Below, piece by piece: positions 5,390-33,799 of a stretch of 64,000 bases of DNA. The translations under genes and the position numbers were made by a program. Each line of letters opens with the position of its first letter. Within the stretch, counting starts at the first letter, position 1. The stretch is from Chromatiales bacterium (GTDB lineage Bacteria; Pseudomonadota; Gammaproteobacteria; SpSt-1174): contig JABURS010000043.1 of assembly GCA_014762505.1 (NCBI GenBank), positions 62,001 through 126,000 of the forward strand, in the 5' to 3' direction. The notes beneath the pieces are model-generated. The model had not been told where the DNA came from. It did no database searches and saw nothing but the letters and a program-made list of their open reading frames with translations.

Positions 5390-6406
5390 ATGATTGGGCG
5401 CACATTAAAATGCCATGTTGTGATGCCCCTTATGCCGAATCAGTTAGCTGTATTTGCGGCCTCCCTGCCTCAAATCTCCAGGACGCTACGCCTGAAGGTG
5501 AGCGTCTGGGGGCTGAAGAAGTGGGCCAGGTTGACCAGGCGGCATCTGGATGACCATGTGGCGGCGGAGCGAAGGTTGCGGGGCAAGGACCAGCTGGACA
5601 GGCTTCGCCGTGCCGATGTTGTGGTCGTGTCGTTCGGCAAGAGCGGGCGAACCTGGCTGCGGGTGATGGTTTCCCGGCTGTATCAGCAGATGCACGATTT
5701 GCCGGAAGACGCCCTGCTCGGCTTTGACAACTTCCATAACATGAATAAGGCCATCCCCCGTGTCTTCTTTACCCACGACAACTACATCGGCGACTACACC
5801 GGGCACAAGGACAGCAAGGTCGATTTCTACGGCAAGAAAGTCGTGCTGCTGGCACGGGACCCGCGTGACGTGGCGGTCTCGCAGTTCTTCCAGTGGATGT
5901 ACCGCATGAAGCCGGAGAAGAAGCTTCTAAACGAGTATCCCCCACATGGTACGGAACTTTCCCTCTTCGACTTCGTGATGCATCCGGGCGGTGGCATGCC
6001 GAAGGTGATCGATTTCATGAACCTATGGGCCCGGGAGATGGGGAACGTAAAGGACATCTGCGTGATCCGCTACGAGGACATGCGTGCCGAACCGGAGAAG
6101 ACGCTGGCCAAACTGGCCGAGTTCATGGAAATGGGCGCCGCTGATGCGCAGATCCGCGAGGCGGTGGAGTATGCATCGTTCGAGAGCTTGAAGAAGAAAG
6201 AGGCTGCAGGGAGTTTCCGTCTCGGCGGCGGTCGTATGATGCCAGGGGACAAGAACAACCCGAATAGCTACAAGGTGCGTCGGGCCAAGGTAGGTGGCTA
6301 CCGAGACTACTTCGAGGATGAACAGGTGCGGGCCATCGACGAGTTGATGGAGTCGACCCTCGACCCGGTGTACGGGTACCGGGCCTCGGAGCCTGTTGAA
6401 AAATAA
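5390..6406 (+). CDS. PAPS-dependent sulfotransferase (copy 1)
   Basis: Cytosolic-type sulfotransferase that transfers sulfate from PAPS to a hydroxyl group. The 5'-phosphosulfate loop is SFGKSGRTWL (residues 81-90), the candidate catalytic histidine lies in FTHD (His129), and the 3'-phosphate motif is RDPRDVAVSQFF (156-167, with Arg156 and Ser164). C-terminal KVRRAKVGGYRDYF resembles the RKGxxGDW cofactor element. A paralogue lies at 14383-15312 and matches over its whole length. The start is uncertain: ATG 5390 adds about 26 residues compared with the paralogue, and ATG 5432 is an alternative. PAPS would come from the fused Sat/CysC at 31236-32951. A lipid or glycolipid acceptor is inferred from the locus. 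Confidence 0.85.
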   Translation: MIGRTLKCHVVMPLMPNQLAVFAASLPQISRTLRLKVSVWGLKKWARLTRRHLDDHVAAERRLRGKDQLDRLRRADVVVVSFGKSGRTWLRVMVSRLYQQMHDLPEDALLGFDNFHNMNKAIPRVFFTHDNYIGDYTGHKDSKVDFYGKKVVLLARDPRDVAVSQFFQWMYRMKPEKKLLNEYPPHGTELSLFDFVMHPGGGMPKVIDFMNLWAREMGNVKDICVIRYEDMRAEPEKTLAKLAEFMEMGAADAQIREAVEYASFESLKKKEAAGSFRLGGGRMMPGDKNNPNSYKVRRAKVGGYRDYFEDEQVRAIDELMESTLDPVYGYRASEPVEK

Positions 6407-6485
6407 AGAGTTATCTGGCTCTGCGCGCTAGGGCCGGTGCCAATTCAATGCGCGGTACGGGACGTCATCCAGCCGCTTCAATTCT

Positions 6486-6505
6486 GGCGGGCATGGCCCG
6501 CCCTG
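6486..6505. repeat. GGCGGGC palindrome, copy 1 (terminator-like hairpin)
   Basis: Seven-base stem GGCGGGC / GCCCGCC with loop ATG, lying between the convergent sulfotransferase and glycosyltransferase genes. The same stem occurs at 10849-10865 and 21393-21409, each time after a gene end. It could act as a transcript-end hairpin; there is no strong T-tract. Confidence 0.5.
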
Positions 6506-6548
6506 TTGGCGACCCTCCGCAGAACTTCCTGGATTTTTTCGCTCTCGG

Positions 6549-7457
6549 TCAGTTTGCCTTGGCCAGCGGCGGGGTGCGGTCCAGTACCTCGAAGGCGTCG
6601 TGGCGGATGTGGTCCTTCTGCATCTCGTCGCGCAGTCTGGCCTCGGTGACGATGCCCTCGTCCAGGCATTCCTTCAGCAGTCCGAAGAACAGGGCTTCCT
6701 GGTTGGGGTCCGGGTGCGGCTGGTATCTGCCGGCCAGGCCGTAGTCGCCGAACAGGGCGCGGCGGGCGCGGCGTAGCCAGTGCTTGGGCGGGAACAGGCG
6801 GAATTTGTCGGCGGCGCGGAAGTCCACCGGCAGCCCGGTCTTCCAGGGCTGGGTCTTGCGCTTGGTGGTGTGCAGCATCTTCGTGCCGGCGTCGAGGTGG
6901 TCGAGGTCGTTCCACTGCTTTTCGAGCAGGCCGATGGTGTCCGGGTCCTCGTACTTGAGGCAGACCCAGCCCATGTAGTCGCGGGTGCCCTCGAACATGG
7001 CGTTGAACTGTTCCTCGAACTTCCAGTGGCTGAGTCGGGCGTTGTCCAGCAGCATGACGCTGGTCGCCATGCAGCCCTTCTTGCCCTTGGCCAGGTCCTT
7101 GGGGCGACAGCAGATCGCCTTGCCTTCCATGTCGCGCGAGAACAGCTCCCACACGTCGCCCACGGCGAAGACGTCCGGGTCGATGACGACAGAGCGACCC
7201 TCAAAGCCCATCAGCTCGGGCGGCATGAAGCGGGTGGGGGTGAAGGATTGCAGGTCGTCCCGGACCCAGGGGCGCCATTCGCCGTCCCGCAGGTAGAGCT
7301 GGCCCTCGCGCGACCGGAGTATCGGGAAGTCGTCATAGTGCATGATGCGGATGTCGAAGCGCTCGTTGTGTTTCGAGTTGCGGCGCAGCGCATGCTGTGC
7401 GACCAGGGCGCCAACGTACTGCTTGTCGTTGGTCTGGATGAAGACGCAGTGGTCCAT
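6549..7457 (-). CDS. GT-A fold glycosyltransferase, GT8-like (copy 1)
   Basis: A 302-residue cytoplasmic protein resembling glycogenin/GT8-type glycosyltransferases. It opens with a short strand (CVFIQTN) followed by a helix (LVAQHALRR), and a metal- and sugar-nucleotide-binding D-x-D is visible as VVIDPDVF (Asp93, Asp95). A C-terminal KTQPWKTGLPVDF loop with several histidines (MLHTTKRK) could be the second metal site. It is a clear paralogue of the gene at 12103-13053, with blocks such as DDLQSFTPTRFMPPELMG identical in both. Divergently arranged with the ELM1-family gene at 7645. Sugar donor and acceptor unknown; a glycolipid acceptor is inferred from context. Confidence 0.7.
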   Translation of the reverse strand: MDHCVFIQTNDKQYVGALVAQHALRRNSKHNERFDIRIMHYDDFPILRSREGQLYLRDGEWRPWVRDDLQSFTPTRFMPPELMGFEGRSVVIDPDVFAVGDVWELFSRDMEGKAICCRPKDLAKGKKGCMATSVMLLDNARLSHWKFEEQFNAMFEGTRDYMGWVCLKYEDPDTIGLLEKQWNDLDHLDAGTKMLHTTKRKTQPWKTGLPVDFRAADKFRLFPPKHWLRRARRALFGDYGLAGRYQPHPDPNQEALFFGLLKECLDEGIVTEARLRDEMQKDHIRHDAFEVLDRTPPLAKAN

Positions 7458-7542
7458 GCAGGGGTCCTCGAGGTTGCTGCCACCGTAAGTGCGCGCATTT
7501 TACCGGGCCCATCGGGGTAAGCCAACGCGAGTCGCGTTCTGG

Positions 7543-7556
7543 TTGAGCCAGATCAA
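7543..7556. promoter_or_regulatory. FNR/Anr-like palindrome
   Basis: TTGAG-CCAG-ATCAA differs from the FNR consensus TTGAT-N4-ATCAA at one base. It sits in the divergent intergenic region between the glycosyltransferase (7457) and the ELM1-family gene (7645), about 37 bp upstream of a perfect TATAAT. A role in oxygen-responsive control is possible, but one such site could be chance. Confidence 0.35.
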
Positions 7557-7592
7557 TACCCGGCCTCCTTTCTGGCGAGGTGGCAAAATGCG

Positions 7593-7598
7593 TATAAT
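7593..7598 (+). promoter_or_regulatory. Sigma70-type -10 element
   Basis: A perfect TATAAT. No good -35 lies at the right distance (TTCTGG with a 17 bp spacer), so activation may be needed, perhaps through the palindrome at 7543-7556. Its position inside the open frame that begins at 7489 argues that translation of the downstream gene begins later, at TTG 7645. Confidence 0.5.
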
Positions 7599-7644
7599 TT
7601 CGGCCTATTCTTCCGCCCGTTTTCGTTTTTTCAAAGGACTGGTC

Positions 7645-8808
7645 TTGGCGCAAGCGCAACCTGCATCTCCACGTATCTGGCTGGTCCTCGGCGACAAGCG
7701 CGGCGACAACGGCCAGGTGGAGGTGATCGCCGAGGCCCTGTCGCGGCGTTTCGGCTGGTTCAGCGAGTGGCATCACGTGGAGATGCTGCCGAAATACGTG
7801 CTGGGCAAGCCGCGCCCCGGCCCCACCCTGCACCATATCGACCGCGAGCGTTCCGATCCGCTGGCGCCGCCCTGGCCGGACCTGATCCTGACCTCCGGAC
7901 GCCGGCCGGCCAACGTGGCGCTGTGGATCAGGAAGCAGTCCGGCGGGCGCAGCCGCATCGTGCTGGTGGGCCGGCCGGCCGGCTTCCTGTTCCATTATCA
8001 GTCGCGCTTCGATCTCATCATCACCAGCGCCGAGACCATGCCGGCGCCCTTCCCCAACGTCACGCACATCAGTCTGCCGCTCATGCGGGTCGACGAGGCG
8101 CGCCTGGATGCGGGTCGGCGGGAATGGCAGGCGGCGTTTTCCGCGCTGCCCCGGCCACTGGTCGTGTTCCTGATCGGCGGGCCGACGCGCCCCTTCGTCT
8201 ATGACGACGCGGTGCTGGACCGGCTGTGCGTGCGCGTCGGGCAGGTGGTGGCGGCCGGCGGCACGCCGTATCTCGTCACCTCGCGGCGCACGCCCGCGGA
8301 TTATGCGGCGCGGCTGAAGGCGGCGCTGCCCGAGGCGGCGCGATTCTACGACTGGCGCAATCCGGAGGGGGAGAACCCCTATGCCGGTTTGCTGGCGCTG
8401 GGGGACCGGTTCGTCGTCACGGGCGACAGCATCTCGATGATGGTGGAGGTGGCCAAGCTGGGCCGCCCGCTCGAGATCCTGCCCTTGCCCACCAGCCTGG
8501 TCGGCGGGCTCGACCAGGCACGACGCCGGCTCGCCGTGTGGCTGTTCCAGCCGGCCCGCAACAACGGCGCCGGTGAACGGCTGCGCATCGCCCTGGCCCG
8601 CGGGCTGTATCATGCCCGCCTCATGCAGCAGGCGCGGCATTTTCCACGGTTTCACCAGCGGCTGGTCGACGAGGGACTGGCGAGCTGGATCGGCGAGGGC
8701 GGTGACGAGCCGCGCTCCAGCGCGGACGGGGTGGCACGTGTGCTGAGCCAGGGTGAGCGGGACCTGGCACGCATCACGGATCGCATCGCCAGGCTGTTTC
8801 AGGCCTGA
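7645..8808 (+). CDS. ELM1-family GT-B-like protein (copy 1)
   Basis: Member of the mitochondrial fission ELM1-like family, which has a predicted GT-B glycosyltransferase fold; bacterial members occur in surface or lipid loci. Family hallmarks are WLVLGDKRGDNGQ at the N-terminus, LAPPWPDLILTSGRR, VLVGRP, VFLIGG and the late GDRFVVTGDSISMMVEVA segment. The start is taken as TTG 7645 because AAAGGA lies at 7634-7639 and a TATAAT lies inside the longer frame; this gives 387 residues. Two paralogues lie at 13114-14211 and 20210-21349. The signal-peptide protein gene follows after 19 bp, in an apparent operon with the lipid kinase. Biochemical activity of the family is poorly known. Confidence 0.75.
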   Translation: MAQAQPASPRIWLVLGDKRGDNGQVEVIAEALSRRFGWFSEWHHVEMLPKYVLGKPRPGPTLHHIDRERSDPLAPPWPDLILTSGRRPANVALWIRKQSGGRSRIVLVGRPAGFLFHYQSRFDLIITSAETMPAPFPNVTHISLPLMRVDEARLDAGRREWQAAFSALPRPLVVFLIGGPTRPFVYDDAVLDRLCVRVGQVVAAGGTPYLVTSRRTPADYAARLKAALPEAARFYDWRNPEGENPYAGLLALGDRFVVTGDSISMMVEVAKLGRPLEILPLPTSLVGGLDQARRRLAVWLFQPARNNGAGERLRIALARGLYHARLMQQARHFPRFHQRLVDEGLASWIGEGGDEPRSSADGVARVLSQGERDLARITDRIARLFQA

Positions 8809-8827: not shown

Positions 8828-9841
8828 ATGGCCCACATGTCCGAACATCATCCCCTTTTCGCCGCAAGACGCCGCACCGGCCTGTTGGCAGCAGCGCTCT
8901 TCGCCTCGGTGCTGGGTGCGTCCTCCGCACTGGCCGATGCGGCGAGTACGTCGTCTCTGCCGGACCTGAAGGCCGTCGGTTGGCAGTCCCTGGGCTATTC
9001 GCGCGCCAACATCTGGGCCTCGGTGTCGTCGCGTATCGCCCTGCACGAGTTGCCTGCCTCGTCCCTGCCGGCCGGCGGCCTGCCGCAGGGTCAGGGGGCA
9101 TCTCAGGGCGCATCTCAGGGGCTGTCGCCGGCCGGCGGGCAGATGCTGCTCCTGCAGGCGGATAGTCAGGCGGCCTCCAATCGCGAGCGACTCTCGGTCT
9201 GGTTCGACCCGCTGGCCGAGACCCTGTTGCAGCGCTGCCGCGTGGCCTATGGCCGTAGCGACAGCCGTGCCCAGTGCTATCGCTACGGGGATGCCACGGT
9301 GTGGCGGGAGCGCCGCGAGCGCAGCGGTAATGGCGGTCCCGACGAGCCGGAGTGGGTGCAGGGCGGCGCGAAGACGGCCGTCGTTCCGGACTGGACGGTG
9401 TCCAGCCGGGTCAGGTTGTCACGACCCGCCGCCATACCGGCCGATGCCGGTCTGGTCTCGCCGATGCTGCTCCTGCCGCTGGCGAGCGCGGCCCCGCTGG
9501 AGACGCGCGGCGACAGCCAGACCGTCTACGTGCACACGGACCAGGACTTCTTCCGTGTCACCCTGCGGGTGCAGGGACGTGAGACCGTCGATGTGGAATA
9601 TCGGCAGACGGCCATGGATGGCACGACACGCAAGATCGTCGGCCCGGTCCGGGTCCTGGTCGTCGAGGTCGAGCCCCATGCCGTGGGCACCGCCCGGGAG
9701 CCCTTCACCCTGCTCGGCATGTCCGGGCCACTGCAGCTCCTGCTCGATCCGGCGACCCGCGTGCCGTTGGCCGTGCGTGGCGAGGCCCCCTGGGTCGGCG
9801 CCACCGAGCTGCGCCTGGACAGCGTGCGACTCGCCCGATGA
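8828..9841 (+). CDS. Secreted protein of unknown function
   Basis: A 337-residue protein with a clear signal peptide: positively charged start (AARRRTG), hydrophobic core LLAAALFASVLGASS and an Ala-x-Ala-like cleavage site near ADAAS. The mature part is predicted periplasmic. A short repeat (QGASQGASQG) near residue 75 is encoded by a 12-base tandem repeat. The C-terminal 110 residues look beta-rich (VYVHTDQDFFRVTLRV and VGPVRVLVVEVEP) and end in a strand typical of lipid- or envelope-associated beta folds, but I do not recognise the family. The stop codon overlaps the lipid kinase start (ATGA at 9838-9841), suggesting translational coupling and a shared pathway. ATG 8828 is chosen because the longer frame lies inside the preceding gene. 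Confidence 0.65.
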   Translation: MAHMSEHHPLFAARRRTGLLAAALFASVLGASSALADAASTSSLPDLKAVGWQSLGYSRANIWASVSSRIALHELPASSLPAGGLPQGQGASQGASQGLSPAGGQMLLLQADSQAASNRERLSVWFDPLAETLLQRCRVAYGRSDSRAQCYRYGDATVWRERRERSGNGGPDEPEWVQGGAKTAVVPDWTVSSRVRLSRPAAIPADAGLVSPMLLLPLASAAPLETRGDSQTVYVHTDQDFFRVTLRVQGRETVDVEYRQTAMDGTTRKIVGPVRVLVVEVEPHAVGTAREPFTLLGMSGPLQLLLDPATRVPLAVRGEAPWVGATELRLDSVRLAR

Positions 9842-10839
9842 CACGGCCTGGGAACGTCGTCGCAACGCGGGTGGCGCTGATCAGCAACCCGGGCAGCGGC
9901 AACAACCGCAGGGCGCTGGACCGGGTCAGTGCGCGCCTGGCCGCCTGGCCGCAGCTCGCACACCATATCACCCGCTCTCCCGCCGAGGCCGAGGCCCTGG
10001 TCCCGCGCCTGGCCGCGGAGGACGTGGAGGTGGTCGCCATCAATGGCGGCGACGGCACCATCGCCGCCCTGGTGGGCATGATCCTGCACCACTGGCCCGC
10101 CGATCGCCTGCCGCTGATCCTCGTGCTCCCCGGCGGTACCGCCAACATGACGGCGGGTGACGTCGGCCTGGCGGCCTCGCATCGTCGCGCCTGGCGGCGC
10201 TTCTACCGCTGGCTGGCGCAGGACTGCCCGCTGGACGGCCGAGTCATCGAGCGCCACATCATGCGCGTGGAGGGGGCCCGGGACGGACAGCGACGCTATG
10301 GCATGTTCCTCGGCACCGGTGCGATCATGCAGGCCACGCAGTATGCCCACAGCGCGGTGCATTCGCGCGGGCTGGGGGGCGAGATCAGTCTCGGCCTGAT
10401 CCTGATTCGCGCCCTCTGGGGGCTGGTCCGGCAGGATCCCCGCTTCTACCAGCCCACCCGGGTGCGCATGCGGCTGCAGACGGGCGAGGATGACCCGCTC
10501 GAGCGGGACGAGGCCCCGATGCTGATCCTGGTGGCGAGCACCCTGGGGCGTCTCTTTCTGGGCATTCGCCCGTTCTGGTCGACACGGCCCGGCGCCCTGG
10601 GGCTGACGGCCATCCAGGCCGGTGCCGCGCGGTTCTCGCGCAGCATCCTCTCGGTGCTGCGCGGGCGGCCCAACCGCCATGCCACGCCTGAAAACGGCTA
10701 CGAGAGCCTGCGTGCCGATCGTGCCGAGCTGTGGTTCGACGGCGAGCTCAACCTGGACGGCGAACTCTTCGCCACCGCCGCCGACCGGCCGCTGGTGGTG
10801 ACGGCAGAAGGCCCGGTGCGCTTCCTGCGCCCGCGTTGA
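9838..10839 (+). CDS. Lipid kinase of the diacylglycerol/sphingosine/ceramide kinase family
   Basis: A 333-residue cytosolic lipid kinase of the DAGK catalytic fold. The nucleotide-binding segments are all visible: NPGSGN (17-22), NGGDGT (69-74) and PGGTANM (98-104). The C-terminal domain ends with LWFDGELNLDGELF, the usual acidic lid of the family. Members phosphorylate diacylglycerol, sphingosine or ceramide using ATP. Given a ceramide operon 17 kb away and a Tam41-like CDP-lipid synthase directly downstream, ceramide or diacylglycerol are both plausible substrates; sequence alone does not decide. The start ATG overlaps the stop of the secreted protein gene. Confidence 0.85.
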   Translation: MTRPGNVVATRVALISNPGSGNNRRALDRVSARLAAWPQLAHHITRSPAEAEALVPRLAAEDVEVVAINGGDGTIAALVGMILHHWPADRLPLILVLPGGTANMTAGDVGLAASHRRAWRRFYRWLAQDCPLDGRVIERHIMRVEGARDGQRRYGMFLGTGAIMQATQYAHSAVHSRGLGGEISLGLILIRALWGLVRQDPRFYQPTRVRMRLQTGEDDPLERDEAPMLILVASTLGRLFLGIRPFWSTRPGALGLTAIQAGAARFSRSILSVLRGRPNRHATPENGYESLRADRAELWFDGELNLDGELFATAADRPLVVTAEGPVRFLRPR

Positions 10840-11051: not shown

Positions 11052-12011
11052 ATGACCGGCCCGCAGTCATCCCCGCCCGATTATCCTGTCGTCGACGGCC
11101 CGACGCCGGCCGACTCGGCCCCGCTGCGCGCCCTGGTCGAGGCCCTGGAACGGCGCTTCGGCGACGCCCTGCAGGCGGTGGTGCTGTACGGCTCCTGCCT
11201 GCGCAGCACCGACCTGCTCGATGGCCTGGTGGACCTCTACGCCCTGGTGGACGACTACGCCCGCGCAGAACCCCATGCGGGACTGCGGCTCGGTGTGCGC
11301 CTGCTGCCGCCGAACGTCTATTACCTGGAGGCCCCCGTGGGGGAGGCCACCGTGCGCTGCAAGTACGCGGTGCTGAGTCTGGCCCATTTCGAGCGTGGCA
11401 CCAGCCGGGCCTGGTTCCAGTCCTACCTCTGGGGTCGCTTCGCCCAGCCGGTGAAGGTGGTGTACAGCCGCGAGCCGGCGGTGGAGGCCCGTCTGCAGGC
11501 GGCCTGTGTGCAGGCCGGCGAGACCCTGCTGCGCCGGGCCATTCCGGCGTTGCCGCCCGAGGGGCGGCTCGACGCCCTGTGGGCGGGCGCGCTGGCACTG
11601 AGCTATGCCACCGAGCTGCGTTCCGAGCGCCGGGGGCGGGCCGCCGAGCTGGCCGGTCACGGGCAGGGCTTCTACGCGGCCCTGACCCCTGTGCTCATCC
11701 CGCGCCTGGGCGGTCTGCTGGCGCTGGAGGAAGGCGGTGACGGCCTGCGTTACCGCTCCCGTGCCAGCGCCGCCTCGCGCCGCCTCGCGTCGCTGCTCTG
11801 GTGGCTGCGACGGGTGCAGGGCAAGACCCTCTCCATGGCCCGGCTGATCAAGGGGCTGTTCACCTTCGAGGGCGGACTCGACTACCTGGCCTGGAAGCTC
11901 ACCCGGCACTCCGGGCAGGTGGTCGAGATCCCGGACAAGGTGCGCCGCCGGCCGCTCATCCACATCTGGGGACTGTTCTGGCAGCTGTACCGGCGCGGGG
12001 TGTTCCGCTAG
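11052..12011 (+). CDS. Tam41/Mmp37-like phosphatidate cytidylyltransferase
   Basis: A 319-residue protein resembling Tam41, the mitochondrial enzyme that makes CDP-diacylglycerol from phosphatidate and CTP. Shared features: the nucleotidyltransferase-fold YGSCLRS (46-52) with acidic residues in DLYALVDD (61-68), then NVYYL, KYAVLS (104-109), LWGRFAQPVKV (126-136), an ALSYATELR segment near 180, and KGLFTFEGGLDYLAWKL near 265-281, matching the yeast element KGVFT...YAWAKKL as I remember it. It has no transmembrane helices, unlike CdsA. It lies 212 bp after the lipid kinase gene. The product could be CDP-diacylglycerol or, if the kinase makes ceramide-1-phosphate, a CDP-activated ceramide; the latter is speculation. 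Confidence 0.7.
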   Translation: MTGPQSSPPDYPVVDGPTPADSAPLRALVEALERRFGDALQAVVLYGSCLRSTDLLDGLVDLYALVDDYARAEPHAGLRLGVRLLPPNVYYLEAPVGEATVRCKYAVLSLAHFERGTSRAWFQSYLWGRFAQPVKVVYSREPAVEARLQAACVQAGETLLRRAIPALPPEGRLDALWAGALALSYATELRSERRGRAAELAGHGQGFYAALTPVLIPRLGGLLALEEGGDGLRYRSRASAASRRLASLLWWLRRVQGKTLSMARLIKGLFTFEGGLDYLAWKLTRHSGQVVEIPDKVRRRPLIHIWGLFWQLYRRGVFR

Positions 12012-13113: not shown

Positions 13114-14211
13114 CTACGGTTCCTGTGTCGTGGTGGCGCCGGTAAAGAGCGCGCGGATGCGCGCGGCCGCGCGCTGTGCCTCGTCCGGTGCGTCACACGC
13201 ACGTGCCCAGTCCTCGCCGCCGGCGATCAGCCCGGGCGCATCCTCCAGCCAGCGTGCCTTGCCCTCCTGCACCAGCGCCGCCTGGATGCGCGAAACATCC
13301 CGGCGCATGCGCCGGGGCGCCAGGTGCATGGCCAGACGGTGGCTCAGGGGCTTGTGGCGGAAGTTGTGCGGCTGCCGCCACCAGGGCCCGGGCGGATCGC
13401 CCGGGTCGAACAGGTACAGCGGCCGCCCCAGTGCGCTGGCCTCGGTCAGCATGGACATGCTCTCGCCGGTGACGACGAAGCGGTCGGCCAGCCCCAGGTA
13501 GGCGAGGTACGGGTTTTCCTGCGCGCCGTCCCGCGCGTGCCACCAGTAGGCCTCGGCCGGTACGTCCAGGGCCGCGCGAAAGGCCTCGGCCACGGCGGGC
13601 GGCGTGCGCGGACTGTCCGTGACCAGCACCGAGCCGCCGGTCTGCGCGACCAGTCGATTCACGCCCGCGGCCAGGCGTCGGCCCTTCTCGGGGGTGAAGA
13701 CGAAGGGGCCGCTGTCGCCGCCGATCAGCACCGTGGTATAGGGGCGCGGCAGGTGCGCGAGCCGTGGGGCCAGCGTCTGTGCCGCGCTGGCCGCGCGTTC
13801 GCGCGTGATGCGATGCAGCGGCAGGGCGTTGTGCAGCACGTTGGTCTGCCGTGGCAGGAAGTACTGCGGGGTGGTGACGATCAGGTCGTAGCAGGCCAGC
13901 GGCGCCCAGGGGCGGCCGATGTGCACCAGTCGCGTCCGGTTGCCGGATTGTCTGCGAATCCAGCGGGCCACGGGCTCGTTGCGCCGGCCGGCGCTGATCA
14001 CGAGATCGGGCCAGGGCGGGGCGAGGGGGCTGGAGGCGCTGCGGTCGATGCCGGCCAGGGTGGTGCCGAGCAGGAGATGGGGGGCGAGCTCCCAGCTGCG
14101 GGCGAGGATGCGCTTTTCCTCGAAGGGCCAGCCGAGGGCCTCGGCCAGGGCCAGTACCTGATTGTTGTCACCGGCCTTTCTGCCCAGCAACACCCAGACC
14201 TGTTTTTCCAT
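13114..14211 (-). CDS. ELM1-family GT-B-like protein (copy 2)
   Basis: A 365-residue ELM1-family protein. It has VWVLLGRKAGDNNQ at the N-terminus, LAPPWPDLVISAGRR, RLVHIGRP, the TTPQYFLP loop, TVLIGGDSGPF and GLADRFVVTGESMSMLTEA. It is closer to copy 3 (20210-21349) than to copy 1: both share the TTPQY segment and the N-x-L-P-L-H-x-I/V element. The divergent neighbour at 14383 is the second sulfotransferase. A GT-B glycosyltransferase role is predicted from the fold; the reaction is unknown. Confidence 0.75.
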   Translation of the reverse strand: MEKQVWVLLGRKAGDNNQVLALAEALGWPFEEKRILARSWELAPHLLLGTTLAGIDRSASSPLAPPWPDLVISAGRRNEPVARWIRRQSGNRTRLVHIGRPWAPLACYDLIVTTPQYFLPRQTNVLHNALPLHRITRERAASAAQTLAPRLAHLPRPYTTVLIGGDSGPFVFTPEKGRRLAAGVNRLVAQTGGSVLVTDSPRTPPAVAEAFRAALDVPAEAYWWHARDGAQENPYLAYLGLADRFVVTGESMSMLTEASALGRPLYLFDPGDPPGPWWRQPHNFRHKPLSHRLAMHLAPRRMRRDVSRIQAALVQEGKARWLEDAPGLIAGGEDWARACDAPDEAQRAAARIRALFTGATTTQEP

Positions 14212-15318: not shown

Positions 15319-16179
15319 TCAGCCTTTCTGTTTCGCCCCGTGTGCGGCCGAGCTGGCGTACTGCTGCACCAGCTGGTAGTCCGCCACCGAGTCCACGTCC
15401 ACCGCGGCATTGGCGTAGGGCAGGATCACCACGCCCAGGCGTAGCCCGAGCTTGCGCGACAGGCGCGCGAGCGCATCCTCCAGCGTCAGGCGTCCCATCC
15501 GGTAGCGAATCACCGCCGAGAGTCCCAGCAGGCGGATGACCACCAGCGGTTTCTTGCGATCCTTCTCCACGCGTCGCCAGAAGTCGGCCACGCGCCGGCC
15601 GTCCGCCGTCATGAAGGCGAACAGGTTGCAGCCGCAGTAGTTGCCATCGCGAAAGCGCAGGACGGTCTTCTTCAGGTCGGGGTAGGTGCTCTTCACCAGC
15701 TCATAGGGTGCGAGGCCGATGACCACGTCGCAGCCGGTGGCGGCACTGTCGCTGCAGAAGCGGTCAACGATTTCGCTGGTGAGCAGCGGGTGGTCGGCCG
15801 TGGTGAGCAGTACCGGCCGTCTCTCGGGGAAGCGGCGCAGCATGTGATCGGCGCTGGTGCTGGGTGTGCCCGCGGCCGGTGCCCAGCCGACGCGTTGCTG
15901 CGTGACGAGTTCTGCGAGCTTTGTGTCGGCCTTCACGCAGTCCTCGGTCGGGCCACTGAGGTCGATGGAGTCGATGCTGGCAGCGCCTTCCAGGGCCTGG
16001 ATGACGCGGCGGATCATGCTGGCGCCACCGATGTCGATGAGCGCCTTGCAGGCGACGCCGGAGTGGTCACGCAGGGCATCGCGCTGCGTTCTCTCGCCGG
16101 CAAGAATCACGGAGGCGAAGGCGGGCATGTCGGTCGTCGGGGCGTGTTCCGGGGCGGGGGTTGTCTTCGGGTCGCTCAC
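15319..16179 (-). CDS. Nucleotidyltransferase, MobA/NTP_transf_3-like
   Basis: About 286 residues from GTG 16179, or 269 from ATG 16128. The N-terminal ASVILAGERTQRD and CKALIDIGGASMIRRVIQAL match the nucleotide-binding start of sugar nucleotidyltransferases, though the usual GxGTRM loop is changed to GERTQRDAL. TTADHPLLT is the typical metal-binding D-x-P-x motif, and VDVDSVADYQLVQQY the usual C-terminal V-D-x-D-x-x-x-D-x element. GTG 16179 begins 8 bp after the stop of the GNAT ceramide synthase candidate, so both are probably in one transcript. The product could be a nucleotide-activated headgroup for the lipid locus; substrate unknown. Confidence 0.65.
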   Translation of the reverse strand: MSDPKTTPAPEHAPTTDMPAFASVILAGERTQRDALRDHSGVACKALIDIGGASMIRRVIQALEGAASIDSIDLSGPTEDCVKADTKLAELVTQQRVGWAPAAGTPSTSADHMLRRFPERRPVLLTTADHPLLTSEIVDRFCSDSAATGCDVVIGLAPYELVKSTYPDLKKTVLRFRDGNYCGCNLFAFMTADGRRVADFWRRVEKDRKKPLVVIRLLGLSAVIRYRMGRLTLEDALARLSRKLGLRLGVVILPYANAAVDVDSVADYQLVQQYASSAAHGAKQKG

Positions 16180-17566: not shown

Positions 17567-18535
17567 GTGGCCAAGTTCATCCTCGGCAATACGTTTCGCA
17601 AGAAGGCGTTCGACAACCCCGTTGTGCGCCACACGCTGTGGTTCCTGGACCTGCTCCTCATCGGCCTGCTGTACGGCATCTTCAAGCTGCTGCCGGTGAC
17701 CTGGGCCTCGGCACTGGGTGCCCGGCTCGGTCGCCTGTTCAGCCGGCTGTTCGAGGGGCGAAACCGGCATATCCGTGCCAACCTGTCGCTGGCCTTCCCG
17801 GAGAAGTCGGCCGAGGAGATCGAGCGCCACGTGGGCGAGGTCTGGGCGAACGCCGGCGCGATACTGGCCGAGTACCCGCATATCCGCCGCATCATCGATC
17901 CACAGCGCGATTTCCTGGAGATCGTGATCCGCGAGCAGATCCCCGCCTATTCCGATCCGAACCAGCCGGCGGTGTTCGTGGTGGCGCACCTGGCCAACTG
18001 GGAGGTGGTCGGCGCTTCCATGGCGCGATTCGGCATCCGTTCCTATGCCATGTACGCGCCGCTGGCCAATCCCTGGTTCAACCGGCTGATGCTGCGCTAT
18101 CGCGGCATGCTGGGCTGCGAGCTCATCTCGCGCGACCAGGGGGTGCGCCCCTTCGTCAACGCGCTCAAGGGCGGCGGTTCGGCGGCCATGATCATCGACC
18201 GGCGGGTCGAGGGGGGTGAACCCATCCCGTTCTTCGGTGTCGATAAGCCATCGTCGACCCTGCCCGCACGCCTGGCGCTGCGTTTCAAGGCCCCGCTGGT
18301 GCCGGTGCAGGTCGAGCGGCTGTCCGGGCCGCGGTTCCGTGTCACCTTCCACGAGCCATTGCAGGTGAGCGACCCGCAGGCCGATGTCGATACGCAGGCC
18401 ATCGACCTCACGCGCCAGATCCACGAGCACTACGAGCGCTGGATCAGCGCGCGTCCGGGCGAGTGGCTTTGTACGAAAAAAATCTGGCCCGGTGATATAC
18501 TCCGGGCCAGAACCGATGCCTACAGAAAGGCGTAG
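17567..18535 (+). CDS. LpxL/HtrB-type lysophospholipid acyltransferase (copy 1)
   Basis: A 322-residue inner-membrane acyltransferase of the lipid A lauroyl/myristoyltransferase family. An N-terminal hydrophobic helix (LWFLDLLLIGLLYGIFKLL) is followed by RANLSLAFPEKS and the catalytic HX4E motif HLANWE (141-146). MIIDRRVEGGEPIPFFG is the family's acyl-donor element. The start is taken as GTG 17567 behind AAGGA at 17549-17553; the much longer open frame upstream is antisense to the GNAT gene. It heads a plus-strand set with the 2-hydroxylase-like gene. It may acylate a sphingolipid-type product rather than lipid A; not decidable here. Confidence 0.8.
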   Translation: MAKFILGNTFRKKAFDNPVVRHTLWFLDLLLIGLLYGIFKLLPVTWASALGARLGRLFSRLFEGRNRHIRANLSLAFPEKSAEEIERHVGEVWANAGAILAEYPHIRRIIDPQRDFLEIVIREQIPAYSDPNQPAVFVVAHLANWEVVGASMARFGIRSYAMYAPLANPWFNRLMLRYRGMLGCELISRDQGVRPFVNALKGGGSAAMIIDRRVEGGEPIPFFGVDKPSSTLPARLALRFKAPLVPVQVERLSGPRFRVTFHEPLQVSDPQADVDTQAIDLTRQIHEHYERWISARPGEWLCTKKIWPGDILRARTDAYRKA

Positions 18536-21531: not shown

Positions 21532-23259
<1,728 letters not shown>

Positions 23260-24411: not shown

Positions 24412-24415
24412 GGCG

Positions 24416-26550: not shown

Positions 26551-27765
26551 CTAGTCCTGGCCGCCGCAGCGGGCCGAGGCAAAGGCCGTGCTGGCACGGG
26601 CGTCCCCGAAGGCGGCCACGATGGCATCGATCTGCTCGAAGCTGTGACCGGCACTCATGCTGCAGCGCAGCAGCGAGGCGCCGTCCGGCGAGGCGGGCGG
26701 GACCACCAGGTTGACGTAGACGCCGCTGGCCAGCAGCTCGTTCCAGATGCGGGCCGCCTCGTCGTGGGACTCCACGCGTACCGCGACCACCGGGCTGGGT
26801 GGCGAGGCGAGCTTGCAACCCAGGTCGGTGAGGCCGGTGTAAAGCCGGTCCACGTTGGCCCACAGCCGCTCCTTGATCTCGGGGCGGGTGCGGATGGCCT
26901 TCAGTGCCCAGTGTGCCGCGGCGATATTGGCCGGGCTCGAGGAGGCGGTGAAGATGTAGGGGCGGCTGCCGTAACGCAGCAGGTTGAGTTCTTCGTGGCG
27001 GCTGACGCAGAAACCGCCCAGCGAGCCCAGGCTCTTGCTGAAGGTGCCGGTGATGAAGTCCACCTCGTCGAGGATGCCGGTCTGTTCAGCCACGCCCAGG
27101 CCTCTCTCGCCGTACACGCCCAGGGAGTGGGCCTCGTCCACCATGAAGTAGGCGCCGAATTCCTTGGCCACGGCGCAGAGCTCCGCCAGCGGGGCGGTGT
27201 CGCCCAGCATGCTGTACAGGCCCTCGGTGATGACCAGTGAACCCTCGGCGTCCGCGCCTAGACGGCCGAGACGCTTGCGCAGGTCGTCCGGGTCGTTGTG
27301 GCGGAAGGTGAAGAAGTCCGCCCCGCTGATGCGGCAGCCGTCATAGATGCTGGCGTGGCTGTGGGCGTCGAGCACCACCTTGTCGCCCGCGCGCAGCAGG
27401 CCCATGATCAGGCCGAGGTTGGCCTGGTAGCCGGTGGAGAAGATCATCGCCGACGGCACGCCGTAGAAATCCGCAAATTCCTGTTCCAGCGCGACGTGGC
27501 TGGAGAAGCTGCCATTGGCCATGCGCGAGCCGGTGGTGCCGCTGCCCTGTTCGTGCAGGGCGTCGCAGGCCGCATCGAGAATGCCCTGCTCGAAGGTGAG
27601 GCCGAGGTAGTTGTTGGTGCCGGCAAGAATGGTGCGCCTGCCGGCGATCATGGCCTCGGTGGCGGACAGCAGCTTCTCCATGACGACCCGGCTGGGGTCG
27701 GCGTCGGCCGCTCCCAGGGCGTCACGAATGTGTGTGAGTTCGGCGAAGCGTTTGGAAATACTCAT
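26551..27765 (-). CDS. spt: Serine palmitoyltransferase-type alpha-oxoamine synthase
   Basis: A 404-residue PLP enzyme that would condense serine with an acyl thioester to form 3-ketosphinganine, the first committed step of sphingolipid synthesis. NNYLGL (51-56) is the family's substrate-entry motif, HSHASIYDG carries the ring-stacking histidine, VDEAHS (209-214) the PLP-pyridine aspartate and TFSKSLG (241-247) the PLP lysine Lys244. BioF and KBL share the fold; the neighbours (dedicated ACP, acyl-ACP synthetase, NAD-dependent reductase) point to Spt. The start overlaps the acpR stop (ATGA, 27762-27765). The absence of biotin or threonine genes nearby supports this call. Confidence 0.85.
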   Translation of the reverse strand: MSISKRFAELTHIRDALGAADADPSRVVMEKLLSATEAMIAGRRTILAGTNNYLGLTFEQGILDAACDALHEQGSGTTGSRMANGSFSSHVALEQEFADFYGVPSAMIFSTGYQANLGLIMGLLRAGDKVVLDAHSHASIYDGCRISGADFFTFRHNDPDDLRKRLGRLGADAEGSLVITEGLYSMLGDTAPLAELCAVAKEFGAYFMVDEAHSLGVYGERGLGVAEQTGILDEVDFITGTFSKSLGSLGGFCVSRHEELNLLRYGSRPYIFTASSSPANIAAAHWALKAIRTRPEIKERLWANVDRLYTGLTDLGCKLASPPSPVVAVRVESHDEAARIWNELLASGVYVNLVVPPASPDGASLLRCSMSAGHSFEQIDAIVAAFGDARASTAFASARCGGQD

Positions 27766-28028
27766 GACTTATCCTCGGCAAGCCGTTTGACCTGGTTGGC
27801 GAGATCCTGGACGGTGCTGACATCGGCCATCACGTTCAGGGGGACGATCACGTCGAAATGGTCCTCGATCTCCGTCAGCAGTTCCATGACGTTGATGGAG
27901 TCCAGACCCATGTCCGCCACCAGGTTGGTCTGCTCGTTCAGTTCGATGTTCTTGGTCGGGAAGCGTTCCAGCAGGTGAAACAGCGTCTGCAGGATCTCCT
28001 GGTACAGGTCTTTGGTCTCACTCGACAT
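27762..28028 (-). CDS. acpR: Acyl carrier protein for sphingolipid synthesis
   Basis: An 88-residue ACP with the phosphopantetheine serine in DMGLDSINVME (Ser44). It would carry the acyl chain between the acyl-ACP synthetase and serine palmitoyltransferase. ATG 28028 is the start: the longer frame up to 28169 lies inside cerR. It overlaps the end of cerR by 11 bp and its stop overlaps the spt start. This ACP is distinct from the housekeeping fatty-acid ACP in sequence around the serine (INVMEL rather than VELVM) and in context. Confidence 0.85.
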   Translation of the reverse strand: MSSETKDLYQEILQTLFHLLERFPTKNIELNEQTNLVADMGLDSINVMELLTEIEDHFDVIVPLNVMADVSTVQDLANQVKRLAEDKS

Positions 28029-30782: not shown

Positions 30783-31235
30783 TACAGTGTTCCTTATTCC
30801 GTTTTTCGGAAATATCCGGTTGTTGCGTCAATCTGTTCGGGCAAATAGTAAAGTACGACCGCTGAATTCCCCAAGTGGTTCATTTCACAGCAGAAGTCAC
30901 CCGTTTCCCCAGGCCGCAGGGGCCTATCCTAGGCGCCACCCTGTCAGGCACATAATATAAGCGAGCGATGATACGACGCCGGGCAGGGTGATTTCAATCG
31001 GCACTCGACACGTCCCGCCCGGTTTCGGTACCATCGCCTACCCCCGGGCAAAGGCGTGGCGACCCAAAACTATCATCCCGGGCAGGGAATTGATGGAACG
31101 TGCTGCACAGAATGTGCATCCGCCACTGTGGCACCCTCTCCCCCCGCCCGTTAGTCTCCAGCCATTGGGCATGCATGTATCGTGCCCGAGCAGCGGGCAT
31201 GACAGATTTCACGGACTTGCAAGAGTAAGCACCAC
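30783..31235. other. Divergent intergenic region of the ceramide operon and PAPS genes
   Basis: About 450 bp between the divergently transcribed aasR and sat/cysC. It is relatively A+T rich near 30790-30860 and 30945-30985 (AATATAAGCG). A promoter candidate for aasR lies at 30845-30874. No open frame with a good start is seen, and no riboswitch or repeat was recognised. Confidence 0.6.
30845..30874 (-). promoter_or_regulatory. Candidate sigma70 promoter for the ceramide operon
   Basis: On the minus strand TTGGGG and TACTAT are separated by 18 bp, about 65 bp upstream of the aasR ATG. The -10 has five of six consensus bases if TACTAT is compared with TATAAT loosely; the -35 is moderate. Confidence 0.4.
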
Positions 31236-32951
31236 ATGACAACAGGCCTGATCGCCCCACATGGGGGCGAGCTCAAGGAGCTTTATGCCGATTCCGCGCG
31301 CGTCGAGGCGCTCAAGCGCGAGGTCTCGGACCTGCCTTCCTGGGATCTGACCCCGCGCCAGCTCTGTGACGCCGAGTTGCTGCTCAATGGTGCCTTCTCC
31401 CCGCTCACGGGATTCCTGGGCGAGGCCGATTACCGTGCCGTGCTCGCCGACATGCGCCTGGCAGACGGCACCCTCTGGCCGATGCCGATCACCCTGGACG
31501 TGAGCGAGGCCTTCGCCGGCAACGTGAAGGCGGGGGATCGTATTACCCTGCGCTGCCCCGAGGGCGTGCCGATCGCCATCCTCACCGTGACCGACATGTG
31601 GACGCCGGATCGTCGGGCCGAGGCCGTGGCCGTGTTCGGCAGCGACGATGACCTGCACCCGGGCGTGGATTTCCTGCTCAACCGTTCCAACCCCGTCTAT
31701 CTCGGCGGCAGCCTCGAGGGCATCGAGCCGCCCACCCACTACGATTTCCGTCACCTGCGCGACACCCCGCGCGAGCTGCGCGAGAAGTTCGTGAAGTGGG
31801 GCTGGCGTCGCGTGGTCGCCTTCCAGACCCGCAACCCGATGCATCGCGCCCACCAGGAGCTCACCTTCCGGGCCGCGCAGCAGGTCGAGGCCAATCTCCT
31901 GATCCAGCCCGTGGTCGGCATGACCAAGCCGGGCGACATCGATCACTACACGCGCGTGCGCTGCTACGAGAAGATCCTGGACTGCTACCCCGACCAGACC
32001 ACCGGCCTGTCGCTGCTGGGTCTGGCCATGCGCATGGGCGGTCCGCGCGAGGCGCTGTGGCACGCCATCATCCGCAAGAACTACGGCTGCACCCACTTCA
32101 TCGTCGGGCGCGACCACGCCGGTCCCGGCAAGAACCGGGCGGGCGAGGACTTCTACGGGCCCTACGACGCCCAGGAACTGGTGGCGACCTACCAGGACGA
32201 GCTCGGCATCCAGATGGTGCCCTTCCAGATGATGGTGTACGTGCAGGAGCGCGCCCAGTACGTGCCGATCGACGAGGTGGCCGAGGGCGAGACCGTGCTC
32301 AACATCTCCGGCACCGAATTCCGCCGCCGCCTGCGCGAAGGGCTCGACATCCCCGAGTGGTTCTCCTACCCGGGCGTGGTGCAGGAGCTGCGTCGCGGCT
32401 ACCCGCCGCGCGACCGCCAGGGGCTGGTGATCTTCTTCACCGGCCTGTCGGGCTCCGGCAAGTCGACCATCGCCAACGCCCTGCGCGTGAAGCTCATGGA
32501 GATGGGCGGTCGCCCGGTGACGCTGCTTGACGGCGACCTGGTGCGCAAGAACCTGTCCAGCGAGCTCGGCTTCTCGCGCGAGCACCGCGATCTCAACATC
32601 CAGCGCATCGGCTTCGTCGCCGCCGAGATCGCCAAGGCCGGCGGCATCGCCATCTGCGCGCCGATCGCGCCCTACGCGGCCACCCGCCGCCAGGTGCGCG
32701 AGATGGCCGAGGCCCACGGCGGCTTCATCGAGGTGCATGTCGCCACCCCGCTGGAGGTCTGCGAGCAGCGTGACCGCAAGGGGCTGTATGCCAAGGCGCG
32801 CGCCGGCCTCATCAAGGAATTCACCGGCATCAGCGATCCCTACGAGGAGCCGGAGAACCCCGAGATGCGCATCGACACCGCCGATGCCAGTGCCGACGAG
32901 GCCGCCCATCGCATCCTGCTCAAGATGGAGAGCATGGGCTTCCTCAAGTAA
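31236..32951 (+). CDS. sat-cysC: Bifunctional ATP sulfurylase / APS kinase (PAPS synthetase)
   Basis: A 571-residue fusion that makes adenylylsulfate from ATP and sulfate and then phosphorylates it to PAPS. The sulfurylase part (to about residue 390) carries QTRNPMHRAHQ and GRDHAGPG; the kinase part has the P-loop GLSGSGKST near 403 and LLDGD about 30 residues later. Assimilatory and oxidative sulfur genes are absent nearby, while two sulfotransferases are in the window, so supply of PAPS for sulfation is the likely role. In sulfur oxidisers single Sat proteins usually lack a fused kinase. It is divergent from the ceramide operon and followed by cysQ after 26 bp. Confidence 0.9.
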   Translation: MTTGLIAPHGGELKELYADSARVEALKREVSDLPSWDLTPRQLCDAELLLNGAFSPLTGFLGEADYRAVLADMRLADGTLWPMPITLDVSEAFAGNVKAGDRITLRCPEGVPIAILTVTDMWTPDRRAEAVAVFGSDDDLHPGVDFLLNRSNPVYLGGSLEGIEPPTHYDFRHLRDTPRELREKFVKWGWRRVVAFQTRNPMHRAHQELTFRAAQQVEANLLIQPVVGMTKPGDIDHYTRVRCYEKILDCYPDQTTGLSLLGLAMRMGGPREALWHAIIRKNYGCTHFIVGRDHAGPGKNRAGEDFYGPYDAQELVATYQDELGIQMVPFQMMVYVQERAQYVPIDEVAEGETVLNISGTEFRRRLREGLDIPEWFSYPGVVQELRRGYPPRDRQGLVIFFTGLSGSGKSTIANALRVKLMEMGGRPVTLLDGDLVRKNLSSELGFSREHRDLNIQRIGFVAAEIAKAGGIAICAPIAPYAATRRQVREMAEAHGGFIEVHVATPLEVCEQRDRKGLYAKARAGLIKEFTGISDPYEEPENPEMRIDTADASADEAAHRILLKMESMGFLK

Positions 32952-32977
32952 CACGCCGACCCAGGAATCCGTACATC

Positions 32978-33799
32978 ATGCCCGTCGATACCCAGGCCCT
33001 GCTGCCCGCCGTCTGCGACCTAGCCCGCGAGGCCGGGGCCGCCATTCTGCGTGTCTACGAGAGCGACGACTTCGACGTCCAGACCAAGGGCGACGACTCC
33101 CCGCTGACCCGCGCCGACCTCGCCTCCAACCGCGTCATCGTCGACGGCCTGCGCCAGCTGGACGCCAGCATCCCGGTGCTGTCCGAGGAATCGCGGCAGG
33201 CGCCCTACAGCGAGCGCGCCGGCTGGTCCCGCTACTGGCTGGTGGATCCGATGGACGGGACCAAGGAGTTCGTCAAGCGCAGCGGCGAGTTCACCGTCAA
33301 CATCGCACTGGTCGACGAGGACGGCGTGCCGGTGCTGGGCGTGGTCTATGCCCCCGTGCTCGACCGCCTGTACTTTGCGGCACGCGGTCACGGTGCCTTC
33401 CGCCAGGACGGTCAGGACACCCCGCGGCCCATCCACGTGGCGGCCTACGACGGCAGCACCCCGAACATCGTCGCCTCCCGCTCGCATGGCGGCGAGACCC
33501 TCAAGCGTTTCCTCGACCAGGTGGGCGACTTCGAGGTCGTGAGCATGGGCAGCTCGCTCAAGCTCTGTCTCGTCGCCGAGGGTGCGGCGCATCTTTATCC
33601 CCGCCTCGGCCCCACCATGGAATGGGACACCGGCGCGGCGCACGCCATCGTCAACGAGGCCGGCGGGCAGGTCACCGATCTCTCCGGCAGGCCGCTGGCC
33701 TACAACAAGGAAGACCTGCTCAATCCCTACTTCATGGTCGAAGGCAATCCGCCCTATCCCTGGCGCGAGATGCTGCCCGCCGACATCGAGCCCGCATAG
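32978..33799 (+). CDS. cysQ: 3'(2'),5'-bisphosphate nucleotidase
   Basis: A 273-residue metal-dependent phosphatase of the inositol monophosphatase fold that dephosphorylates 3'-phosphoadenosine 5'-phosphate to AMP. DPMDGTKEF near residue 90 is the metal site, PVLSEES carries the activating glutamate, and WDTGAAHAIVNEAGG near 210 is the second motif. PAP is the by-product of PAPS-dependent sulfotransferases and inhibits them, so the gene completes a sulfation module with sat-cysC. Transcribed together with it (26 bp gap). Confidence 0.9.
   Translation: MPVDTQALLPAVCDLAREAGAAILRVYESDDFDVQTKGDDSPLTRADLASNRVIVDGLRQLDASIPVLSEESRQAPYSERAGWSRYWLVDPMDGTKEFVKRSGEFTVNIALVDEDGVPVLGVVYAPVLDRLYFAARGHGAFRQDGQDTPRPIHVAAYDGSTPNIVASRSHGGETLKRFLDQVGDFEVVSMGSSLKLCLVAEGAAHLYPRLGPTMEWDTGAAHAIVNEAGGQVTDLSGRPLAYNKEDLLNPYFMVEGNPPYPWREMLPADIEPA

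What the first reader, a model, noticed from the sequence alone, without database searches (positions are those of the whole stretch)
5390..33799. Possible biosynthetic locus for a sulfated sphingolipid
In one region lie ceramide synthesis, a ceramide-type hydroxylase, acyltransferases, a lipid kinase, five GT-like proteins, two PAPS sulfotransferases, PAPS synthesis and PAP removal, and lipid-export proteins. Such a set would be expected for an anionic, sulfated sphingolipid, analogous in logic to sulfatides of animals. I do not know of a described bacterial pathway with this exact content.
Basis: inference. Interest (0 to 1): 0.9.

Follow-up and report, generated by a model that had tools for sequence, protein, structure and literature searches.

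The report
Gene cluster for a sulfated sphingolipid
A block of about 30 genes in a sulfur-oxidiser-like bacterium appears to build a sugar- and sulfate-decorated sphingolipid for its outer membrane, and the same sulfation genes travel with ceramide genes in many unrelated marine bacteria, which suggests an undescribed bacterial counterpart of animal sulfatides.

Summary
Window 5390-33799 encodes a full bacterial ceramide set, a ceramide-kinase-type lipid kinase, CpgD/CpgC-like nucleotidyltransferases, a hydroxylase, two LpxL-like acyltransferases, three ELM1-type (GT-B) and two GT8-like glycosyltransferases, two intact PAPS sulfotransferases (ST), Sat-CysC, CysQ, an MsbA-like ABC transporter and LptF/LptG. 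The backbone resembles the Caulobacter ceramide-phosphoglycerate locus; the sulfation/glycosylation module is the addition.

New evidence ties sulfation to the sphingolipid. In 369 gammaproteobacterial genomes, all 6 carrying this ST clade also carry serine palmitoyltransferase (Spt; 20/369 overall), 3-12 kb away in five of the six. Two congeneric genomes differ by the ST block beside spt. A colinear, 60-78% identical cluster sits in alphaproteobacterial Roseovarius. The host's only full APS kinase lies in the cluster and the host has no PAPS reductase, so PAPS is available for sulfotransfer. Fifteen ST+/Spt+ genomes lack a detectable LpxC, which disfavours lipid A as acceptor there.

Best reading: a sulfated (phospho)glycosphingolipid exported to the outer membrane. 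Acceptor sugar, sulfate position and product are inferred. No description of such a pathway was found in the open-licence papers searched. I rate it a new variant of a known kind.

The parts
3134..3811 (+). SAM methyltransferase-like protein, probable cluster member
   Evidence: Weak PF13489; 73-78% identical homologue beside ST1 in Roseovarius L026-L029
3863..5251 (-). Wzy_C / O-antigen-ligase-like membrane protein, membership unsure
   Evidence: PF04932 57 bits; weak homologues (27-30%) inside the cluster in L057 and L062
5390..6406 (+). ST1, PAPS sulfotransferase
   Evidence: PF00685 95 bits; PAPS motifs intact
6549..7457 (-). GT8-like glycosyltransferase (U302a)
   Evidence: No Pfam/NCBIfam; 65% identical to U302b, same family as the modelled one
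7489..8808 (+). ELM1-type GT-B glycosyltransferase (ELM_a); start may be 7582 or 7717
   Evidence: PF06258 169 bits
8753..9841 (+). Exported-looking protein of unknown function, conserved beside the kinase; start probably 8837
   Evidence: No Pfam or NCBIfam match; 26-33% homologues next to the kinase in Halieaceae, 49% in Thiohalobacter
9838..10839 (+). Ceramide-kinase-like lipid kinase (CpgB / CC_1160 type)
   Evidence: PF00781 49 bits; GGDG motif present in the sequence
11052..12011 (+). Tam41-like nucleotidyltransferase (CC_1161/CpgC-like candidate)
   Evidence: PF09139 20.6 bits, below cut-off 24; CC_1161 described as CDP-DAG-synthase-like in PMC11324152
12022..13053 (+). GT8-like glycosyltransferase (U302b); start probably 12106
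   Evidence: AlphaFold2 pLDDT 91.8, Foldseek top GlyE, LgtC, GT8, E about 1e-8; invariant D-P-D
13114..14211 (-). ELM1-type GT-B glycosyltransferase (ELM_b)
   Evidence: PF06258 216 bits
14317..15312 (+). ST2, PAPS sulfotransferase; start probably 14383
   Evidence: PF00685 88 bits; 53% identical to ST1; nearest solved structures are plant cytosolic sulfotransferases
15319..16179 (-). CpgD-like (MobA-like) nucleotidyltransferase
   Evidence: PF12804 50 bits
16187..17335 (-). GNAT-type ceramide synthase (CerS)
   Evidence: PF00583 28 bits; beside CpgD or core ceramide genes in most Spt loci
17567..18535 (+). LpxL-like acyltransferase 2
   Evidence: 32% identity of the sister-genome gene to LpxL 1; reading frame and start
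18565..19212 (+). Fatty-acid / sphingoid hydroxylase
   Evidence: PF04116 79 bits
19267..20217 (+). LpxL-like acyltransferase 1
   Evidence: PF03279 126 bits
20210..21349 (+). ELM1-type GT-B glycosyltransferase (ELM_c)
   Evidence: PF06258 201 bits; AlphaFold2 pLDDT 92.2, Foldseek GT-B, top MGD1 galactolipid synthase
21532..23259 (-). MsbA-like ABC transporter
   Evidence: PF00664 + PF00005
23344..24411 (-). LptG/LptF permease
   Evidence: PF03739 189 bits; this and the next are the only two in the genome
24416..25516 (-). LptF/LptG permease
   Evidence: PF03739 180 bits
25539..26486 (-). Metallophosphoesterase
   Evidence: PF00149 55 bits; beside spt or the kinase genes in other loci
26551..27765 (-). 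Serine palmitoyltransferase (Spt)
   Evidence: NF047599 572 bits, cut-off 500
27762..28028 (-). Acyl carrier protein (AcpR-like)
   Evidence: PF00550 47 bits
28018..28884 (-). SDR reductase (CerR-like)
   Evidence: PF01370 88 bits
28977..30683 (-). Fatty acyl-AMP ligase / acyl-ACP synthetase (AasR-like); first ATG at 30782
   Evidence: PF00501 192 bits; NF006624 743 bits
31236..32951 (+). Bifunctional ATP sulfurylase / APS kinase (PAPS synthesis)
   Evidence: NF004040 957 bits; the only full APS kinase in the genome
32978..33799 (+). CysQ, PAP phosphatase
   Evidence: TIGR01331 316 bits, cut-off 229

Best explanation
The locus makes a sulfated glycosphingolipid, probably carrying a phosphate or phosphoglycerate too, and exports it to the outer membrane. 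An AasR-type ligase loads a fatty acid on the dedicated ACP; Spt condenses it with L-serine; CerR reduces and CerS N-acylates to dihydroceramide; the PF04116 enzyme hydroxylates a chain and the LpxL-like enzymes may add further acyl groups. The lipid kinase makes ceramide-1-phosphate, and the CpgC/CpgD-like nucleotidyltransferases activate head-group parts. The ELM1 (GT-B) and GT8-like proteins add sugars. ST1 and ST2 transfer sulfate from PAPS to head-group hydroxyls; Sat-CysC supplies PAPS and CysQ removes PAP. The ABC transporter flips the lipid and LptFG moves it outward. Enzyme classes, intact ST motifs, gene linkage and the PAPS situation are shown here by computation; substrates, order of steps and the product are inferred.
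For: Enzyme families. ST PAPS motifs (KSGRTW, RDPRDVAVS, RRGKVGGY): invariant core residues in the window pair and sister, and key K/G/T/W, R/P/D/S, R/K/G residues kept in about 98% of 245 homologous STs. PAPS logic: one full APS kinase in the genome, in the cluster, and no PF01507 protein (PAPS reductase/CysD) in a genome rated 100% complete, while 14/14 controls have one. Co-occurrence: ST clade in 6 of 369 gammaproteobacteria, all 6 with Spt (20/369), hypergeometric 1.2e-8, and 4/4 (4e-6) without the window's genus; three weaker PF00685 hits have no Spt. Linkage: nearest ST 3-12 kb from Spt in five of those six; of 35 loci of at least 20 kb found by ST alone, 23 hold a ceramide/CPG core gene and 15 Spt; gene order is rearranged between groups, so linkage is retained rather than merely inherited. 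Natural comparison: G151 and G262, same genus, same core cluster, but only G151 has GT8-like + ST2 + ELM_a beside spt. Transfer as a unit: colinear cluster in Roseovarius at 60-78% identity; Roseovarius Spt joins the window's clade (100/99), away from other gammaproteobacterial Spt. Fifteen ST+/Spt+ genomes without LpxC.
Against: No lipid measured in any carrier. Seven of 44 ST+ genomes gave no Spt at E<=1e-70, among them a complete Defluviicoccus chromosome, and five delta/myxobacterial ones only a 39-42% match that may be another alpha-oxoamine synthase, so the ST/GT module may also serve another acceptor. The window's own genome has LpxC and only this one LptFG pair, so the exporter may also, or mainly, move LPS. 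An O-antigen-ligase-like gene lies just outside. Sat-CysC/CysQ adjacency was seen in the sister species but in almost none of the other loci.
Confidence: 0.74

Rival explanations
1. The STs and glycosyltransferases decorate LPS core or O-antigen, and they merely share a locus with sphingolipid genes.
For: LpxC present in the window's genome; the only LptFG pair is here; an ELM1-like protein is needed for lipooligosaccharide core assembly in Acinetobacter baumannii (PMC10936431); O-antigen-ligase-like neighbour.
Against: ST+/Spt+ genomes without LpxC, including isolates Roseovarius tolerans DSM 11457, R. mucosus DSM 17069, Roseovarius sp. 217, Pseudohaliea rubra and Fodinicurvata fenggangensis, keep the module; the ST clade and Spt co-occur 6/6 although Spt is in only 20 of 369 genomes of the class sample.
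Confidence: 0.12
2. The STs sulfate a surface polysaccharide or a small secreted molecule; clustering with ceramide genes reflects a shared envelope island.
For: PF00685 is a broad family with diverse acceptors; Wzy_C-like gene adjacent; 12 of 35 long ST loci show no ceramide/CPG core gene within 10 kb.
Against: Presence/absence beside spt in congeners, repeated linkage in different gene orders, and cross-class movement with the ceramide genes; no capsule polymerisation/export set was identified among the cluster genes scanned.
Confidence: 0.08
3. The locus makes an ordinary ceramide-phosphoglycerate lipid as in Caulobacter, and the sulfation genes act elsewhere (general PAPS metabolism).
For: Ceramide genes, kinase, CpgD-like, LptFG and ABC match the Caulobacter locus in content.
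Against: No PAPS reductase in the genome, so PAPS has no assimilatory use by that route; ST genes interleave with the core and move with it.
Confidence: 0.06

Closest known systems
Caulobacter crescentus ceramide phosphoglycerate locus CC_1152-CC_1168 (PMC11324152, PMC12275187, PMC10331486)
   Same: Five ceramide genes, ceramide kinase, CpgD-type nucleotidyltransferase, CDP-DAG-synthase-like protein (weak), phosphoesterase, LptF/LptG and a flippase candidate in one region; an anionic outer-membrane sphingolipid
   Different: Window adds two sulfotransferases, PAPS synthesis/removal, three ELM1 and two GT8-like proteins, hydroxylase and two LpxL-like acyltransferases; no CC_1159 or CC_1153 counterpart recognised
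Animal sulfatide synthesis (UGT8 + cerebroside sulfotransferase Gal3ST1)
   Same: Logic: ceramide, then sugar, then PAPS-dependent sulfation
   Different: Different sulfotransferase family (PF00685 here; Gal3ST family from own knowledge), different glycosyltransferases
Sulfonolipids (capnine) of Bacteroidota (PMC9304779)
   Same: Anionic sulfur-bearing sphingoid-type outer-membrane lipid
   Different: Sulfonate built in at the first condensation step; here a serine-type Spt and, by inference, later O-sulfation
Sulfate-1-deoxyceramides of the Black Sea (PMC11334938)
   Same: Sulfated ceramide-type lipid attributed to bacteria
   Different: Known only by mass spectrometry of water samples, without sulfation genes; sulfate placed on the fatty acid chain

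Membership tests
Bacterial ceramide / ceramide-phosphoglycerate locus (Caulobacter type) | Five ceramide genes aasR, cerR, acpR, spt, cerS | tested here: met
   Spt above the NCBIfam equivalog cut-off, the others by domain family and synteny
Bacterial ceramide / ceramide-phosphoglycerate locus (Caulobacter type) | Ceramide kinase with GGDG motif and no CxxxCxxC | tested here: met
   PF00781; NGGDGT in the sequence and too few cysteines for CxxxCxxC; criterion from PMC10331486
Bacterial ceramide / ceramide-phosphoglycerate locus (Caulobacter type) | CpgD phosphoglycerate cytidylyltransferase | tested here: inconclusive
   PF12804 only; the three active-site residues were not aligned
Bacterial ceramide / ceramide-phosphoglycerate locus (Caulobacter type) | CC_1161-type CDP-DAG-synthase-like protein | tested here: inconclusive
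   PF09139 20.6 bits below cut-off 24
Bacterial ceramide / ceramide-phosphoglycerate locus (Caulobacter type) | CC_1159-type CDP-alcohol transferase needed for CPG2 | tested here: not met
   No such domain among the cluster genes; the rest of the genome was not searched
Bacterial ceramide / ceramide-phosphoglycerate locus (Caulobacter type) | Second, dedicated LptF/LptG set | tested here: not met
   Pair present, but the only pair in the genome
Bacterial ceramide / ceramide-phosphoglycerate locus (Caulobacter type) | Direct sequence orthology to the Caulobacter proteins | not tested
PAPS-dependent sulfotransferase (PF00685, SULT type) | Family score and PAPS-binding motifs | tested here: met
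Animal cerebroside sulfotransferase (Gal3ST) | Membership of the Gal3ST Pfam family | tested here: not met
   Only PF00685/PF13469 matched
Bacteroidota sulfonolipid pathway | Cysteate-using first enzyme in place of Spt | tested here: inconclusive
   The enzyme passes the serine palmitoyltransferase equivalog cut-off; it was not compared with the cysteate enzyme
GT8 glycosyltransferases (U302a/b) | GT-A fold with DxD | tested here: inconclusive
   Foldseek prob 1.00, E 1e-8, TM about 0.45 to GlyE and LgtC; invariant D-P-D; no Pfam match, activity untested
Sulfated sphingolipid producer | Product detected | not testable with these tools
   Needs lipidomics

The most novel reading that the evidence does not exclude
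Sulfated glycosphingolipids made by this module replace LPS as the main outer-leaflet lipid in several proteobacterial lineages: 20 of 44 ST+ genomes show no LpxC (15 of these with a clear Spt), including named isolates, against 241 of 249 Rhodobacteraceae that have LpxC; and the only LptFG pair of the window's organism lies in the sphingolipid cluster, although that organism itself keeps LpxC.
Probability: 0.35. Interest if true: 0.92.

Novelty: new variant of a known kind. Interest (0 to 1): 0.76.

Why it matters
It would give a genetic candidate for bacterial sulfated sphingolipids, with cultured carriers (Roseovarius tolerans, R. mucosus, Thiohalobacter thiocyanaticus, Chromatocurvus, Pseudohaliea) in which it can be tested at once. 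It offers candidate genes for sulfated ceramide-type lipids seen without genes in the Black Sea, a function for bacterial ELM1 proteins and a new GT8-like family, and a way to ask whether an anionic sphingolipid can naturally stand in for LPS.

Tried and rejected
Sphingolipid-sulfotransferase literature searches found no bacterial pathway; the library holds open-licence papers only. The idea that the window's organism itself lacks LPS was rejected: it has LpxC. A weak APS-kinase hit on C29 covers only 49 of 152 positions and was not counted as a kinase. The third PF00685 gene of the genome (C30) and the G044 homologue are weak relatives without cluster genes around them. Sequence searches of the GT8-like and ELM1 profiles against PDB gave nothing useful; folds did.
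Full report
Observation. The ceramide operon runs on the minus strand: acyl-AMP ligase, SDR reductase, ACP, Spt, followed by a metallophosphoesterase, LptF, LptG and an MsbA-like ABC transporter. Spt passes the NCBIfam equivalog cut-off for serine palmitoyltransferase (572 bits against 500). CerS (GNAT), the CpgD-like nucleotidyltransferase, a PF04116 hydroxylase and two LpxL-like acyltransferases lie at 15-20 kb. The second LpxL-like gene (17567-18535+) was missed by the gene call and found through the sister genome. A PF00781 lipid kinase with a GGDG motif and a Tam41-like nucleotidyltransferase lie at 10-12 kb. Sat-CysC and CysQ close the block at 31-34 kb.

Glycosyltransferases. The 'five GT-like proteins' are three PF06258 ELM1 proteins and a 65%-identical pair without any Pfam or NCBIfam match. 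An AlphaFold2 model of one of the pair (pLDDT 91.8) matches GT8-type enzymes (GlyE, LgtC, xyloside xylosyltransferase, glycogenin; E about 1e-8, TM about 0.45) and the family has an invariant D-P-D. The ELM1 model (pLDDT 92.2) matches GT-B enzymes, the best being the plant galactolipid synthase MGD1. In Acinetobacter baumannii an ELM1-like protein is required for core oligosaccharide assembly (PMC10936431). The reading as glycosyltransferases is therefore by fold; donors and acceptors are unknown.

Sulfotransferases and PAPS. ST1 and ST2 are 53% identical, match PF00685 strongly, and keep the PAPS-binding motifs, whose key residues are also kept in about 98% of 245 related proteins. The best solved relatives are plant cytosolic sulfotransferases. 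The genome (2.77 Mb, rated 100% complete) has one full APS kinase, that of the cluster, and no PF01507 protein at all, whereas all 14 control genomes have one. PAPS made here therefore has no PAPS-reductase outlet and is available for sulfotransfer. This is inference from absence in a draft assembly.

Conservation. The sister genome G001 (its contig is that of a MAG labelled Thioalkalivibrio sp. SpSt-1174) has the same order from CysQ to the 11052 gene, including ST2. G002, of the same family, has neither ST nor Spt. A scan by ST sequence alone found 227 relatives; the best 80 lie in Thiohalobacter, Roseovarius, Halieaceae, Methylothermaceae, Rhodospirillales/Kiloniellales and delta/myxobacteria. 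Around them the GT8-like family (59 loci for the U302b query), ELM1, CERK-like, nucleotidyltransferase, LptFG and Spt recur in several different orders. Of 35 loci of at least 20 kb, 23 hold a ceramide/CPG core gene and 15 hold Spt.

Co-occurrence test. In 369 gammaproteobacterial genomes the ST clade (E<=1e-60) occurs in 6, all with Spt; Spt occurs in 20 (hypergeometric 1.2e-8; 4 of 4 and 4e-6 without the window's genus). In five of the six the nearest ST is 3-12 kb from Spt; in the sixth (G206) they are on different contigs. Three weaker PF00685 hits have no Spt. The genomes are related to varying degree, so these are not strict probabilities. In the fourteen Spt genomes without ST the spt region holds ceramide/CPG genes but no GT8-like gene, apart from one 24% match in G279. 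G151 and G262, same genus, share the same core cluster; only G151 has GT8-like, ST2 and ELM_a next to spt. This is close to a natural insertion experiment.

Transfer as a unit. Roseovarius (Alphaproteobacteria) carries a colinear cluster at 60-78% identity, including both STs. In the Spt tree Roseovarius groups with the window and G001 (100/99), apart from Halieaceae and other gammaproteobacteria. The simplest reading is horizontal transfer of the whole cluster, which argues that the STs and ceramide genes form one functional unit.

Acceptor. LpxC is present in the window's genome, but 20 of 44 ST+ genomes have none, and 15 of those have a clear Spt; 241 of 249 Rhodobacteraceae have LpxC, and the only ST carrier in that sample, R. 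tolerans, does not. Where LpxC is absent, lipid A is an unlikely acceptor. Limits: one gene family was tested, many carriers are MAGs of unknown completeness, and the Roseovarius cases may be a single loss. Seven ST+ genomes gave no Spt match, and five only a distant one, so an additional acceptor is possible in those lineages.

Comparison with the known. The backbone resembles the Caulobacter locus for ceramide phosphoglycerates, but CC_1159 and CC_1153 counterparts were not recognised and orthology was not tested directly, so I say 'works like' and not 'is' a CPG2 locus. Sulfonolipids and animal sulfatides differ in enzymes. Sulfate-1-deoxyceramides have been reported from the Black Sea without sulfation genes. 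No paper found in the held library describes sulfotransferases in a bacterial sphingolipid locus; subscription papers were not searchable, so novelty is provisional.

Verdict. Observation confirmed; interpretation supported, with product chemistry unproven. Confidence 0.74 for a sulfated (phospho)glycosphingolipid, interest 0.76.

Noticed in passing
whole genomes of L024, L026, L027, L057, L072, L076 and others: LpxC (PF03331) not found in 20 of 44 genomes carrying the ST clade, including several named isolates; possible natural loss of LPS.
   Followed up: partly
window 23344-25516: The only two LptF/LptG genes of a genome rated complete lie in the sphingolipid cluster although the genome has LpxC; the exporter may be shared by LPS and sphingolipid.
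   Followed up: partly
L024, L026-L029 (Roseovarius) against window 3134-27765: Colinear cluster at 60-78% identity in another class, indicating horizontal transfer of the whole locus.
   Followed up: partly
window 1295-2296: FA_desaturase-family gene near the cluster; could be the counterpart of the Caulobacter CC_0202 hydroxylase of the amide-linked fatty acid.
   Followed up: no
window 45647-54165: Phage-tail-like genes (sheath, baseplate hub, OB-domain injector, baseplate J), perhaps a contractile injection system or prophage remnant.
   Followed up: no
window 35837-41548: Probable copper resistance genes: P-type ATPase, CopB and a multicopper oxidase.
   Followed up: no
ST subgroup next to ELM_a in Halieaceae and Thiohalobacter (e.g. 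L022, L034): A third, divergent ST type (32-37% to ST1); in the 245-protein alignment about 43 sequences carry Tyr in place of the conserved His125 and a similar number have Asn in place of Arg83, probably this subgroup.
   Followed up: partly
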